A DNA stretch of 64,000 bases from Saccharothrix sp. GTDB taxonomy: Bacteria; Actinomycetota; Actinomycetes; Mycobacteriales; Pseudonocardiaceae. The DNA is taken from positions 275,104-339,103 of the forward strand of contig NZ_JAPSLK010000001.1 of the NCBI RefSeq assembly GCF_031180885.1. Reading direction: 5' to 3'. Shown here piece after piece: positions 45,774 through 49,642 of the stretch (position 1 is the first letter of the stretch; the number at the start of each line of letters is the position of its first letter). A program made the position numbers and the translations under genes. Below the pieces are notes generated by a model. That model did no database searches. It saw only the letters and a program-made list of their open reading frames with translations, and was not told the DNA's origin.

Positions 45774-46892
45774 GTGTCGCGGGTGCCACTGGCCGACGTC
45801 GCGCTGGGCGGCGGGCTCGCCGTCCTCGTGCTGGGGACGAGCTTCCTGGAGGTGGGGCCGCCCGGCCCGGCCGGGTCCACCGGGTGGGGCGCGATCGGGT
45901 TGGCGGTGGTGCTCGGCGCGGCCCTCGCGGTGCGCCGGCGGATGCCCGTGCTGACGCTGGTCGCGGCCAACGCGGTGACGGCTCTGTGGTTCGCGCTGGA
46001 CTACCACGGCCGGCTGGTCACCACGTCCGCCCTGATCGGCTGCTACACCCTGGCCGCCTACCGGGGCTGGAAGGCCGGCGTGCTCGGCGGGATCGGCACG
46101 GCGGCGGTCACCGTGCTCACCGTCCGGTTCACCCTCGGCGGCCAGTGGTTCTCCGACCAGGTCCTCAACGCGATCCCGCTGGAAGCGGCGGCGACCGCCC
46201 TCGGCGCGGCGGTCTTCTCCCACCGGGCCTTCGCGGCCGGCGCGCGGGAACGGGCCGAGCGCATCGCGCAGGCCCGGTCCGACCAGGCCAAGGCGCAGGC
46301 CGCCGAGGAACGCCTGGTCATCGCCCGCGAACTGCATGACGTGTTCGGGCACACCATGGCCGCGATCAGCGTGCAGGCCGGGGTGGCGGTGCACGTCATG
46401 CAACGCCGACCCGAGCAGGTCGTGGAAGCCTTGAACGCCATCAAGCGGATCAGCGACGACGGGCTCGCCGAAGTCCGCGTGCTGCTGGGCGTGATGCGCT
46501 CCGACGAACCGCGCACCCTCACCGCGTCCGGTGGCCTGAAGCACCTGGACAAGCTGCTGGACGTGCCCGGCGTCTCGGTCGACCTCGCCGCCAACGACCC
46601 CCGACCGCTCCCGCTCGCCGTGGACCTGGCCGCGTTCCGGATCATCCAGGAGTCCCTGACCAACGTCCGCCGACACGCCCGCGCCACCCGCGTCCGCCTG
46701 GAGTTGACCTATGGTGCGTCCGAACTGGAGGTCGTCATCAGGGACAACGGCACCGGGGCGGGCACCGGCACCGGCCACGGCATCGAGGGCATGACCGCGC
46801 GGGCGCACGCCCTCGGCGGCACCCTCACCGCCGGACCGGTCGAGGGCGGCTTCGAGGTGCGGTGCGTGCTGCCGGTGGAGGGGGACGCGTGA
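45774..46892 (+). CDS. NarL-type sensor histidine kinase
   Basis: A 372-residue HisKA_3 kinase. About six membrane helices occupy residues 5-150. A short linker with ARSDQAKAQAAEERLVI leads to His188 in ARELHDVFGHTMAAIS. The ATP-binding domain ends the protein with ESLTNVRRHA, IRDNGTGAGTGTG and GIEGMTARAHALGG. It starts at GTG 45774, one base after the secreted-protein stop, and its TGA overlaps the response regulator GTG by four bases. Confidence 0.93.
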   Translation: MSRVPLADVALGGGLAVLVLGTSFLEVGPPGPAGSTGWGAIGLAVVLGAALAVRRRMPVLTLVAANAVTALWFALDYHGRLVTTSALIGCYTLAAYRGWKAGVLGGIGTAAVTVLTVRFTLGGQWFSDQVLNAIPLEAAATALGAAVFSHRAFAAGARERAERIAQARSDQAKAQAAEERLVIARELHDVFGHTMAAISVQAGVAVHVMQRRPEQVVEALNAIKRISDDGLAEVRVLLGVMRSDEPRTLTASGGLKHLDKLLDVPGVSVDLAANDPRPLPLAVDLAAFRIIQESLTNVRRHARATRVRLELTYGASELEVVIRDNGTGAGTGTGHGIEGMTARAHALGGTLTAGPVEGGFEVRCVLPVEGDA

Positions 46893-47536
46893 TCAGGGTG
46901 CTCATCGCCGACGACCAGGCACTGGTCCGCGGCGGCTTCCGGGTCCTGGTGGACAGCGAACCGGACATGACGGTGGTCGGAGAGGCCGCCGACGGCGGCA
47001 CGGCGGCGGCGCTGTGCGCCGAGTTGAAGCCCGACGTGGTCCTGATGGACATCCAGATGCCCGGCGTGGACGGCTTGGAAGGCATCCGTCGCATCGCGGC
47101 GGACCCGGAGTCGACCGGCGTGCGGGTCCTGATCCTCACCACGTTCGACGAGGACGACTACGTGGTCGAAGGCCTCACGGCGGGCGCCAGCGGCTTCCTC
47201 CTGAAGAACACCGACCCGGCCCAACTACTGCACGGCATCCGGGTAGTGGCGGGTGGTGAGGAACTCCTGTCGCCGGGCCTGACCAAGCGCCTGCTGTCCC
47301 GCAACGCACCGAGGTCCACGGTCGACCACGACACCTTCGCCCAGCTCACCGCCCGGGAACGCGAGGTCGTGGCGCTGGCCGCGCAGGGGTTGAGCAATGA
47401 GGAGATCACCCGGGAACTGGTGATCAGCCCGGCCACCACCAAGACCCACATCAGCCGTGCCCTGGCCAAGCTCGGGGCGCGGGACCGAGCCCAACTGGTG
47501 GCCCTCGCCTACCAACACGGCCTGGTGAAGCCCTAG
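46889..47536 (+). CDS. NarL/FixJ family response regulator
   Basis: A 215-residue regulator with receiver (MIRVLIADDQALVRGGF, Asp54 in LMDIQMPG, Thr in LTTFDEDDY, Lys in GFLLKNTDP) and LuxR-type DNA-binding domain (LTAREREVVALAAQGLSNEE, TTKTHISRALAKLGARDRAQ). It is coupled by a GTGA overlap to the kinase. Overall it is close to the other regulator at 37293, so the two systems are paralogous. The gene is followed by the repeat island, with no ordinary terminator between. Confidence 0.94.
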   Translation: MIRVLIADDQALVRGGFRVLVDSEPDMTVVGEAADGGTAAALCAELKPDVVLMDIQMPGVDGLEGIRRIAADPESTGVRVLILTTFDEDDYVVEGLTAGASGFLLKNTDPAQLLHGIRVVAGGEELLSPGLTKRLLSRNAPRSTVDHDTFAQLTAREREVVALAAQGLSNEEITRELVISPATTKTHISRALAKLGARDRAQLVALAYQHGLVKP

Positions 47537-47561
47537 CTGTCCACCACGTGCACCGCTCTTC

Positions 47562-47690
47562 CGCGCACAGCGCGTCGTCCTTCGGCGCGCAGCGCGTCGT
47601 CCTTCGGCACGCAGCGCTCGTCCTTCGGCACGCAGCGCTCGTCCTTCGGCGCGCAGCGCGGCGCTTTGGGCGCGCAGCGCCGTCGGGCAG
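47562..47690. repeat. tandem 21-22-base repeats
   Basis: About six imperfect copies of a unit like CGCGCAGCGCGTCGTCCTTCG follow the response regulator gene. Copies 3 and 4 (CACGCAGCGCTCGTCCTTCG) are identical; copies 5 and 6 diverge after the GCAGCGC anchor. Each unit can form a small GC hairpin. All six frames are open through it, which produces spurious reading frames. Confidence 0.85.
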
Positions 47691-47716
47691 TGCCGCCGGG
47701 GCACACACTTCAACTT

Positions 47717-47885
47717 GGGCTTCTTGCTTGTGTCATCCCCGTATGGCCCGCCCGAAGGGCTACCACATTTTCGGCCGGGTGCAGCCGAAAATTTTGTGAG
47801 GAACGAGCAAAATTTTCAGCGGCACCCGGCCGAAAATGTGGTCGGCTTTGCCGGGTCATGCGGGGATGGCACAAGCAAGAAGCCC
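47717..47885 (+). repeat. long hairpin element E1 (about 80-base arms)
   Basis: The left arm (47717-47796) pairs with the right arm (47808-47885) around an 11-base loop TGAGGAACGAG. Roughly 85 percent of positions pair. The outer part begins GGGCTTCTTGCTTGTG and ends CACAAGCAAGAAGCCC; the inner part has AAAATTTTG against CAAAATTTT, strikingly AT-rich for this genome. Several left/right differences (three in the outer third) are T versus C or G versus A such that G-U pairs remain in a plus-strand transcript. Small open frames here (PYGPPEGLPHFRPGAAENF) are by-products of the repeat. Confidence 0.92.
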
Positions 47886-47940
47886 CCGCAGTTGTAGTTG
47901 TGTCATCCTTGGCGGCTCGCCCGCCGGCGAGGCTCTTTAA

Positions 47941-48110
47941 TCTTTAGACCGGCGCTTCGCTGCTCAAGTCCACGCTTCGCGCGTGTAGACGCAACGCGCT
48001 CCGCACTGCTGGAGAATGAACGCGCTTCGCGCTCTTGAACAGCGCTGACGCGCTCTCAAGCTTGAACGCGCCGGCGCGCTCTCAAGATCAAAAGCGGCCT
48101 GGAGAACCAC
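47941..48110. repeat. cluster of short GCGC palindromes between the two hairpin elements
   Basis: This stretch repeats sequences like ACGCGCTTCGCGCTC, CACGCTTCGCGCGTG and CGCGCTCTCAAG (twice, shortly after one another near 48050 and 48075). Each can fold as a GCGC-TTCG-type mini hairpin. There is no coding signal. Confidence 0.7.
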
Positions 48111-48125
48111 CAATGGGGGAGGGAA

Positions 48126-48283
48126 GGGCGTCGGTTCCCCACCGTATGGCCCGACAAAGCCAACCACAGATTCACCGGGTGCCGCTAAAAACTTTTGCTC
48201 GTTCCTCGCAAAACTTTTTGGCTGCACCCGGTGAATCTGTGGTAGCCCTTCGGGCAGGCCATACGGTGGGGGAACCGAAGCCC
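48126..48283 (-). repeat. long hairpin element E2, inverted copy of E1
   Basis: Left arm 48126-48197 pairs with right arm 48209-48283 around the loop CTCGTTCCTCG, whose complement CGAGGAACGAG matches the E1 loop in ten of eleven bases. E2 is therefore oriented opposite to E1. Arms share GGTGCCGC/GCAGCC and GTATGGCC blocks with E1, but the mid-stem differs: GATTCAC (48169-48175) pairs with GTGAATC (48231-48237), where E1 has TTTTCGGC (47768-47775) with GCCGAAAA (47829-47836). Pairing is thus kept although sequence changed on both arms. Confidence 0.92.
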
Positions 48284-48305
48284 CGCCGTGGCTGGGAGCA
48301 GCCCG

Positions 48306-48343
48306 CCGCGCGGAGCGCGGCCTAAAAGCAGCCGCTGCGCGGC
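48306..48343. repeat. two small perfect palindromes after E2
   Basis: CCGCGC-GGA-GCGCGG at 48306-48320 and GCCGC-TGC-GCGGC at 48331-48343, separated by CTAAAAGCA. They continue the pattern of short hairpins in the repeat island. Confidence 0.7.
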
Positions 48344-48436
48344 GAAAAGCGGAGAGCGGGGTTGCGGCGGCACGAAGGTGTGGTTTGCGTGAGGGTGTCC
48401 GTGGCGTGGGTGGCGGGATGCGGGTGGGCGGCTCGT

Positions 48437-48476
48437 GTGGGCGGTGTGCGGCTCTCGGGTGGGCGGTGTGCGGCTC
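48437..48476 (+). repeat. 22-base-period direct repeat
   Basis: GTGGGCGGTGTGCGGCTC occurs at 48437-48454 and 48459-48476, exactly. The surrounding 120 bases are G-rich on this strand (GGTGGGCGG-type runs), which might form G-quadruplex-like structure. No gene is seen between E2 and 48728. Confidence 0.75.
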
Positions 48477-48534
48477 GGACGGGCGGTGCCGGTGGCCGGC
48501 TGCGGGGGCGGTCGTGACTTGGCGGACACTGCCC

Positions 48535-48572: not shown

Positions 48573-48727
48573 ACTCAGGGTGATCACGGATTACTACACC
48601 CGAGGTAGCGCCGACGATAAGACTGAAGTCGCACCCACGAGTCAACTACAGACCGATGTGGTCGACCCCCTGAACCGGGCAGAGTTCTCGCCGAGATCGG
48701 GGGATGTGCCAGTCCAGGGGAGAAACC

Positions 48728-49642
48728 ATGATCGAGGCGATCGGCCTCACCAAGCGCTACGGGAACACGGTGGCGGTGGACAACCTGTCGTTCACCGTCG
48801 CGCCGGGCCGCGTCACCGGGTTCCTCGGGCCCAACGGCGCCGGCAAGTCCACCACCATGCGGATGATCCTCGGCCTCGACCGGCCGACGTCGGGCAAGGT
48901 GCTCATCGACGGCAAGCCCTACACGCAGCTCGACCGTCCACTCCGGACCGTCGGCGCGCTGCTGGACGCCAAGTGGGTGCACCCCAACCGGTCCGCGCGG
49001 GCGCACCTGGACTGGCTCGCCAAGTCCAACGGCCTGCCCGGCAAGCGGGTGGACGAGGTGCTGGACCTGGTCGGCCTGACCAAGGTCGCCAAGCGGCGCG
49101 CGGGCGGGTTCTCGCTGGGCATGTCGCAGCGGTTGGGCATCGCGGGCGCGCTGCTCGGCGACCCGAAGGTGTTGCTGTTCGACGAGCCGGTCAACGGCCT
49201 GGACCCGGAGGGCATCCTCTGGATCCGCCAGTTCATGCAGGGCCTGGCCGCCGAGGGCCGCACCGTGCTGGTGTCCAGCCACCTGCTGTCGGAGATGGCG
49301 CTCACCGCGTCCGACCTGGTCGTGATCGGCCGGGGCAAGCTGATCTCGCAGTCGACGACGACCGAGTTCGTGGAGCGCTCGACCGAGAACGCGGTGCGGG
49401 TGCGCAGCCCGCACGCCGACAAGCTCGGCGCGATGCTGGTGGACAAGGGGTTCACCGTCCGCGAGGGCGAGGACGGCGCGCTCACCGTGACGGGTGCGAC
49501 CAGTGACCAGGTGGGTGACATCGCGGCCTCCGCCGGCGTGGTGCTGCACGAGCTGAGCCCTCAGCGAGGTTCGCTGGAAGAGGCGTTCATGCAGCTCACC
49601 GGTGATTCTGTCGAGTACCACGCGGCCGAGACGGGGAAGTGA
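48728..49642 (+). CDS. ABC transporter ATP-binding protein (ABC-2 type)
   Basis: A 304-residue ATPase of the drug/natural-product export type. Walker A is GPNGAGKST, the signature region is FSLGMSQRLGIAGALL (degenerate for LSGGQ, as usual in this group), Walker B is VLLFDEPVNGLDPEG and the switch His is in VSSHLLSEM. A C-terminal domain of about 80 residues (SPHADKLGAMLVDKGFTV) ends in LHELSPQRGSLEEAFMQLT, typical of bacitracin/antibiotic-type exporters. ATG at 48728 has GGGGAGAAA just upstream. Its stop overlaps the permease gene by four bases. Confidence 0.93.
   Translation: MIEAIGLTKRYGNTVAVDNLSFTVAPGRVTGFLGPNGAGKSTTMRMILGLDRPTSGKVLIDGKPYTQLDRPLRTVGALLDAKWVHPNRSARAHLDWLAKSNGLPGKRVDEVLDLVGLTKVAKRRAGGFSLGMSQRLGIAGALLGDPKVLLFDEPVNGLDPEGILWIRQFMQGLAAEGRTVLVSSHLLSEMALTASDLVVIGRGKLISQSTTTEFVERSTENAVRVRSPHADKLGAMLVDKGFTVREGEDGALTVTGATSDQVGDIAASAGVVLHELSPQRGSLEEAFMQLTGDSVEYHAAETGK

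What the first reader, a model, noticed from the sequence alone, without database searches (positions are those of the whole stretch)
47717..48283. Two very long hairpin elements in opposite orientation, with conserved loop and compensating stem changes
E1 (47717-47885) and E2 (48126-48283) have arms of about 72-80 bases around an 11-base loop that is nearly the same (GAGGAACGAG core) but lies on opposite strands. Outer and inner stem blocks are shared, while a mid-stem block differs in both arms so that pairing is kept: TTTTCGGC with GCCGAAAA in E1, GATTCAC with GTGAATC in E2. Several E1 mismatches become G-U pairs in the plus transcript. This is what selection for an RNA or cruciform structure, or a palindromic mobile element, would leave. 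No transposase is nearby. The element may be a dispersed family in this genus, and the small open frames it creates may have been annotated elsewhere as hypothetical proteins.
Basis: partly seen in the sequence, partly recalled or inferred. Interest (0 to 1): 0.82.

Follow-up and report, generated by a model that had tools for sequence, protein, structure and literature searches.

The report
Genome-wide paired cross-shaped RNA hairpin family
The two long hairpins are the two ends of one repeated element that is found many times over, mostly near the ends of genes, in Saccharothrix bacteria and some relatives, and the way its copies differ suggests that the folded shape of one strand (most likely RNA) is kept by selection while the sequence itself keeps changing.

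Summary
E1 (47717-47885) and E2 (48126-48283) are the ends of one composite repeat (about 47684-48352). A 29-base stem motif occurs 76 times in this draft genome and 235 times in a closed relative. A covariance model finds the family in 22 of 25 Saccharothrix genomes held and in other genera. Each end is a long stem with two small side arms. In 85 distinct relatives 96.5% of cells pair and 31 of 57 pairs change on both sides. Wobbles are strand-specific: 134 G-T to 4 A-C, 62 to 3 in a second clade. This argues against a plain cruciform and for a folded single strand, most likely RNA. A terminator-like hairpin with a T run follows on that strand in 93 of 140 (antisense 4). Copies lie near gene 3' ends and share sites between species, yet resemble their own genome's copies most. 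No Rfam family at gathering score; RAYT and reverse transcriptase do not explain it. Best reading: a dispersed 3'-end RNA module evolving in concert. Transcription, termination and mobility are unproven; solo copies show no clear orientation to flanking genes.

The parts
47684..48352 (.). composite unit: end 1, tail, centre, tail, end 2
   Evidence: extent of the alignments that recur whole in other copies, e.g. 47684-48352 in L012 and 47670-48351 in L023
47717..47885 (+). E1, end-type-1 hairpin; favoured (side-arm-A first) strand is +
   Evidence: model R1 47723-47879, 84.5 bits on +, 65.1 on -
47750..47760 (+). side arm A, GCCC-GAA-GGGC
   Evidence: sequence; matched changes in relatives at pair 30-37
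47844..47852 (+). side arm B, GGC-TTT-GCC
   Evidence: sequence; relatives have GTC-TTT-GAC
47797..47807 (+). tip loop of E1
47900..47945 (+). tail of E1: GTGTCATCCTTGGCGG, then terminator-like hairpin 47916-47931 and T-rich stretch
   Evidence: in the window alone the scan finds 3 terminator-like sites where shuffles give 1.4, so by itself this is not beyond chance
48126..48283 (-). E2, end-type-2 hairpin; favoured strand is -
   Evidence: model R1 82.6 bits on -, 70.2 on +
48093..48125 (-). tail of E2; only a weak terminator-like site (48111-48093)
   Evidence: site found; none found by the stricter script

Best explanation
E1 and E2 are the inward-reading ends of one copy of a dispersed element whose working form is a folded single strand, most likely RNA. 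Shown at sequence level: the element is repeated; each end folds into a long stem with two small side arms and a variable upper stem; pairing is kept through matched changes; wobbles are tolerated on one strand only; a terminator-like hairpin with a T run usually follows on that same strand; copies lie near gene 3' ends; sites and orientation are shared between species while sequences are most alike within a genome. Inferred: transcripts that run into either end fold into the hairpin and the tail ends transcription, so that a composite is a two-way 3'-end module between convergent genes; copies are kept alike within a genome by recombination or copying between them, and the first copies were spread by a machinery not identified here.
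For: Copy number. Covariation: 96.5% of 4844 cells paired, 31 of 57 pairs with changes on both sides, 0 of 500 shuffles as high, slid structures 36-45% paired. Strand-specific wobbles: 134 G-T to 4 A-C, 293 to 75 in a looser count, 62 to 3 in an independent clade. Terminator-like tail: 93 of 140 sense, 4 antisense, 6 shuffled. Position: 48 of 60 composite ends face a gene that reads into them, median 78 nt from its stop; 17 of 27 composites between convergent genes. Shared sites: 20 of 21 comparisons occupied, 13 of 13 in the same orientation.
Against: Solo hairpins in tandem contexts are 17 sense and 15 antisense to the flanking genes, and in convergent contexts the hairpin side is nearer to its gene in only 10 of 30, so solos are not placed like ordinary 3' UTR elements. 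The distance difference (median 65 against 260 nt, p 0.02) is not significant in the named species alone (p 0.34). 47 of 140 tails lack a terminator-like hairpin by my script, E2's tail among those without. The consensus scan of the window finds 3 terminator-like sites where shuffles give 1.4. No expression data. RNA energy rules form arm A in only 12 of 85, DNA parameters in 80 of 85.
Confidence: 0.5

Rival explanations
1. A non-autonomous mobile element (MITE-like or REP-like) whose two ends are recognised as folded single-stranded DNA or RNA by an enzyme acting in trans; the location at gene 3' ends only reflects where insertions are tolerated.
For: Dispersed copies in either orientation; one shared site with the unit in opposite orientation in G000 and G023 (L029, L079); a site occupied in S. 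tamanrassetensis (L138) and empty in S. obliqua (L156); DNA parameters favour the cross shape; in G007 26 of 39 hairpins point against replication, p 0.053.
Against: Shared sites and orientation between species; no target-site duplication or sharp left boundary found; Y1 transposase absent from G000 and G023; reverse transcriptase absent from G001, G003, G007; a gene inside one split unit is a creatininase, not a transposase.
Confidence: 0.3
2. No function: palindromes are kept perfect by template switching or gene conversion between arms and between copies.
For: Copies are most alike within a genome; 41 of 50 stem blocks in one species are perfectly matched.
Against: Neither process predicts the strand bias of wobbles in two clades, the kept side arms, or the tail on one strand.
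Confidence: 0.1
3. A structure of double-stranded DNA: the palindromes act as cruciforms or protein sites in the chromosome.
For: Long near-perfect palindromes; none of 39 hairpins of G007 in a 3.28 Mb stretch opposite dnaA.
Against: In a cruciform both strands fold, so a G-T on one is an A-C on the other; the strand bias argues against it. The gap may simply follow the core genome.
Confidence: 0.05

Closest known systems
SPRITE, the rho-independent terminator-like repeat of Streptococcus pneumoniae (with BOX and RUP)
   Same: dispersed intergenic repeat with terminator-like sequence (PMC10969869, passages; PMC3049150 seen in a listing only)
   Different: unrelated taxa; not compared by sequence; here two large cross-shaped ends in one composite unit
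REP / BIME / REPIN repeats
   Same: high-copy intergenic palindromes, mostly between convergent or same-direction genes, thought to be transcribed (PMC3733652, passages)
   Different: 20-40 bp palindromes tagged GTAG or CGTC, GTAG ones tied to RAYT; here 110-170 nt hairpins and no Y1 transposase in the two richest genomes checked
MITEs such as ERIC and Correia elements
   Same: non-coding repeats whose transcripts form stable stem-loops; some alter 3' ends or are cut by RNase III (PMC10969869, passages)
   Different: described there as typically AT-rich, with terminal inverted repeats and target duplications; here G+C-rich, no duplication found, sites shared between species
Rfam structured RNA families
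   Same: covarying structure on one strand
   Different: no match at gathering score; in the window only three microRNA models far below their gathering score

Membership tests
REP/REPIN mobilised by RAYT | Y1 (RAYT) transposase in the genome | tested here: not met
   PF01797: no match in G000 or G023; 5 of 25 genomes have one (G005, G006, G012, G017, G024)
REP/REPIN mobilised by RAYT | 20-40 bp palindrome with GTAG or CGTC tag | tested here: not met
   hairpins of about 110-170 nt; length compared with PMC3733652 (listing abstract); tag not searched for separately
MITE | terminal inverted repeats | tested here: inconclusive
   ends are related inverted hairpins in all 33 composites, but of two types and each itself a palindrome
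MITE | target-site duplication | tested here: inconclusive
   one occupied/empty pair (L138, L156) has no clean junction; left boundary of solos not sharp
MITE | related autonomous element with transposase | tested here: inconclusive
   none seen; only one gene inside a split unit examined, a creatininase; no systematic search for autonomous copies
Structured RNA | covarying base pairs on one strand | tested here: met
Structured RNA | transcription | not testable with these tools
   no RNA-seq
Intrinsic terminator element (SPRITE-like) | G+C stem followed by a T run on the same strand | tested here: met
   93 of 140 tails sense, 4 antisense, 6 shuffled; in the window E1's tail yes, E2's tail weak
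Known Rfam family | score at or above gathering | tested here: not met
   on 11 loci: only a glycine riboswitch and two tRNAs, elsewhere in the loci

The most novel reading that the evidence does not exclude
The copies are sites of a copying cycle in which a folded RNA or single-stranded DNA made from one element overwrites the others in place: the chromosomal positions are old and fixed, but the stem sequences turn over as a population inside each genome. It would be a self-homogenising family of structured RNA that spreads by homing onto its own sites rather than by new insertion.
Probability: 0.15. Interest if true: 0.87.

Novelty: new variant of a known kind. Interest (0 to 1): 0.68.

Why it matters
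Dispersed bacterial palindromes are usually explained as leftovers of transposition. Here dozens to hundreds of copies per genome in several species show strong strand-specific covariation, share chromosomal sites between species and yet are most alike within a genome. That makes a large natural data set for asking what keeps such repeats: a 3'-end RNA function, copying over existing sites, or both. No Rfam family covers it at gathering score, and the literature searches made here listed no account of it; in the S. espanaensis genome paper the words palindrom, repeat and inverted do not occur in the text held.

Tried and rejected
RAYT as mobiliser: absent from G000 and G023. Reverse transcriptase as mobiliser: found in 10 of 25 genomes including G000, G012, G021 and G023, but not in G001, G003 or G007, which carry many copies. 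Rfam: none at gathering score; in the window three microRNA models at E 3.8e-5 to 0.19, all far below gathering, taken as chance matches to a long hairpin. Plasmids: no match to the unit; viral contigs: none for one exact stem pattern. Orthologous place of the window's unit: G004 and G005 carry other sequence there and BLAST finds no element; in G007 similarity ends at the regulator gene; none is a clean empty site. Gene inside a split unit of S. obliqua (L171): creatininase, not a transposase. An own promoter: none in the sigma-70-type scan of 47500-48500, which does not cover other promoter types. I first took L214 and L247 for false positives of the model because I displayed the wrong stretch; searches show real hairpins there.

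Gene calls come from a simple codon-position script and miss short genes. Named loci come from one capped scan (82 stretches, three species); 76 of 82 gave hairpins at E up to 1e-6, so the shared-site count leans towards occupied sites, although the stretches cover only a few per cent of those genomes. Cells in covariation counts are not independent events, and the shuffle control does not keep relatedness. In one search, 15 of 150 distinct hairpins could not be oriented and were dropped; the upper stem was not found in 5 of 27, which were counted on the base stem alone. E-values of model R1 are rough; its structure was an RNAalifold rod. In one search only 30 of 39 G007 hairpins had loci, and whether each is solo was not checked.

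Full report
Observation. The two hairpins are real and as described. E1 pairs without a break over 34 base pairs from its base on the + strand if G-U is allowed. Within the 64-kb window the family model finds only this unit (the next hit has E 0.038), and scores E1 higher on + (84.5 against 65.1 bits) and E2 higher on - (82.6 against 70.2).

One unit, many copies. BLAST of the window region against fetched loci shows that E1 and E2 belong to one unit of about 670 bp, 47684-48352, that recurs nearly whole in L007, L012, L023, L029, L039 and others; other copies have only part of it or another second end. A 29-base stem motif of E1/E2, with up to 3 mismatches, occurs 76 times in this draft genome and 235 times in the closed genome G023, and 0 times read backwards. 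BLAST with E1 finds 7 of 25 genomes of the genus. A covariance model, R1, finds 22 of 25 at E up to 1e-3, and 27 of 200 genomes of the family, in 8 of 46 genera, at E up to 1e-8 with stricter filters. All 18 fetched loci from other genera match the model again; by eye most have the base stem, side arms and upper stem, and the tail motif is visible in about 10 of the 18. Named relatives are Saccharothrix tamanrassetensis, S. obliqua and S. algeriensis.

Architecture. From the base: a stem of about 25 pairs; a four-way junction with side arm A (loops GCA 55, GGA 21, GCCA 9 of 85) and side arm B (TTT in 49 of 85, otherwise short pyrimidine-rich loops); an upper stem of about 27 pairs; a tip loop. 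After the hairpin comes a tail, CATCCTTGGCGGYCTGCC or similar, then a small G+C hairpin and T-rich stretch. In three named species 33 composites and 47 solo hairpins were found in 76 loci. All 33 composites are two hairpins reading inward. In the 29 whose two ends could be typed, one end is of the GTGTCATCC type and the other of the GTGTTCTCC type, in either order (19 and 10); of 45 typed solos 43 are of the first type and 2 of the second.

Structure is selected, on one strand. In 85 distinct 137-nt hairpins from five species, 96.5% of 4844 cells pair, 31 of 57 pairs have changes on both sides, and pair 54-89 shows all four Watson-Crick types (GC 34, UA 23, AU 18, CG 10); 0 of 500 shuffles reached the observed value on any of the five measures, and structures slid by 1 to 3 columns pair in 36 to 45% of cells. 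Within S. tamanrassetensis 50 hairpins carry 28 different 14-base blocks, 41 of 50 perfectly matched by the other arm. Wobble cells are G-T 134 and A-C 4, in 21 and 4 pair columns; all five species lean the same way. Orientation was set by the side arm; in the alignment it was set by the model's better strand, but all 85 rows have side arm A first, so it does not rest on the wobbles. The looser count gives 293 to 75 over 135 oriented hairpins (106 with more G-T, 7 with more A-C, 22 equal), and 120 of 135 fold better as RNA on the favoured strand. A second clade with another base stem (GTGTCATCCCRNCGACCT; 81 pattern matches in G016, 61 in G010, 54 in G004, where one hairpin can match twice) gives 62 to 3 in 27 distinct hairpins, none with more A-C. 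In the window's own E1 family, with a cruder pairing, it is 82 to 35 over 28 copies and only 7 of 72 pairs show more than one Watson-Crick type. Matched arms alone could come from gene conversion or template switching, but these do not predict the strand bias. RNA energy rules favour a rod and DNA parameters the cross (arm A in 12 and 80 of 85), while pair 30-37 inside arm A changes on both sides (GC 44, CG 41), which supports the cross. RNA is favoured by the heavy use of wobbles; folded single-stranded DNA is not excluded.

Terminator-like tail. Of 140 tails long enough to test, 93 have a G+C hairpin followed by a T run in the direction of the favoured strand, 4 in the other direction and 6 after mononucleotide shuffling. 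In the window E1's tail has one at 47916-47931; E2's tail has only a weak site at 48111-48093 that my stricter script does not accept; and the window scan as a whole (3 sites, shuffles 1.4, sd 1.6) is not beyond chance.

Where copies lie. Composites with both neighbours called: 17 convergent, 9 tandem, 1 divergent of 27. Of 60 composite ends with a called neighbour, 48 face a gene that reads into them (median 78 nt from its end) and 12 face a gene start (median 427 nt). Solos in tandem contexts are 17 sense and 15 antisense to the flanking genes; sense ones lie closer to a stop (median 65 against 260 nt; p 0.02 overall, 0.34 in the named species, 0.009 in G007). In 30 convergent contexts the hairpin side is nearer in 10. 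So the 3'-end location is clear for composites, and the orientation of solos is not. The window's own unit lies between a LuxR-type response regulator (46862-47536, +) and an ABC transporter gene (48704-49642, +), so E2 faces a gene start. In G007 none of 39 hairpins lies in a 3.28 Mb stretch opposite dnaA, and 26 of 39 point against replication, p 0.053.

History. Among the named loci 21 comparisons had both flanks of an element in a locus of another species; 20 were occupied there and 1 empty, at 7 occupied sites; the loci were chosen for carrying the motif, so this leans towards occupied sites. All 13 comparisons of same-type hairpins at shared sites have the same orientation. Identity between orthologs is 0.69 to 0.89, while the best paralog in the first species reaches 0.94 to 1.00 in 12 of 13; the exception is L151 against L162. 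Between G000 and G023 one shared site has the unit in opposite orientation (L029, L079). One S. obliqua unit has a creatininase gene between its halves (L171). So many sites look old, and sequences look renewed within genomes.

What it is not. No Rfam family at gathering score in the 11 loci searched or the window. Y1 transposases are absent from G000 and G023; reverse transcriptases are absent from G001, G003 and G007. The unit has no match in the plasmid collection, and one exact stem pattern has none in viral contigs.

Mechanism. Best supported is a 3'-end RNA module: transcripts entering either end fold, and the tail ends transcription; copies evolve in concert. The folded structure and the tail are shown at sequence level; transcription, termination and homogenisation are inferred. 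The main rival is a non-autonomous mobile element recognised as a folded strand, which would explain the indifferent orientation of solos better.

Compared with the known. It works like terminator-like and REP-like repeats (SPRITE, REP/BIME, ERIC, Correia: PMC10969869 and PMC3733652, passages seen; PMC2267715 passages). It fails the RAYT and length tests for REPs and differs from them in its composite, two-type, cross-shaped design. Literature searches listed no description of it; most subscription papers are not in that library.

Noticed in passing
L171:965-2126 (S. obliqua): A creatininase gene (PF02633) lies between an end-type-2 and an end-type-1 hairpin, where S. tamanrassetensis and S. 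algeriensis have a short composite at the same site.
   Followed up: partly
window 47553-47680 and 48432-48475: Short tandem-like direct repeats (21-22 bp units such as TCGTCCTTCGGCGCGCAGCGC) flank the unit; they do not belong to the hairpins.
   Followed up: no
G007:C1:3506757-6789368: None of 39 hairpins lies in this 35% of the chromosome opposite dnaA.
   Followed up: partly
L216, L219, L298: In the second clade paired hairpins have their favoured strands pointing outward (- then +), the opposite of the window's clade; seen in these three loci only.
   Followed up: no
window 47852-47915 and the same place in other copies: The start of the tail repeats the 5' base strand of its own hairpin (GTGTCATCC), so the 3' base strand could pair with either one; a possible switch between two folds.
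   Followed up: no
L029 and L079: The same intergenic site in G000 and G023 carries the unit in opposite orientations.
   Followed up: partly
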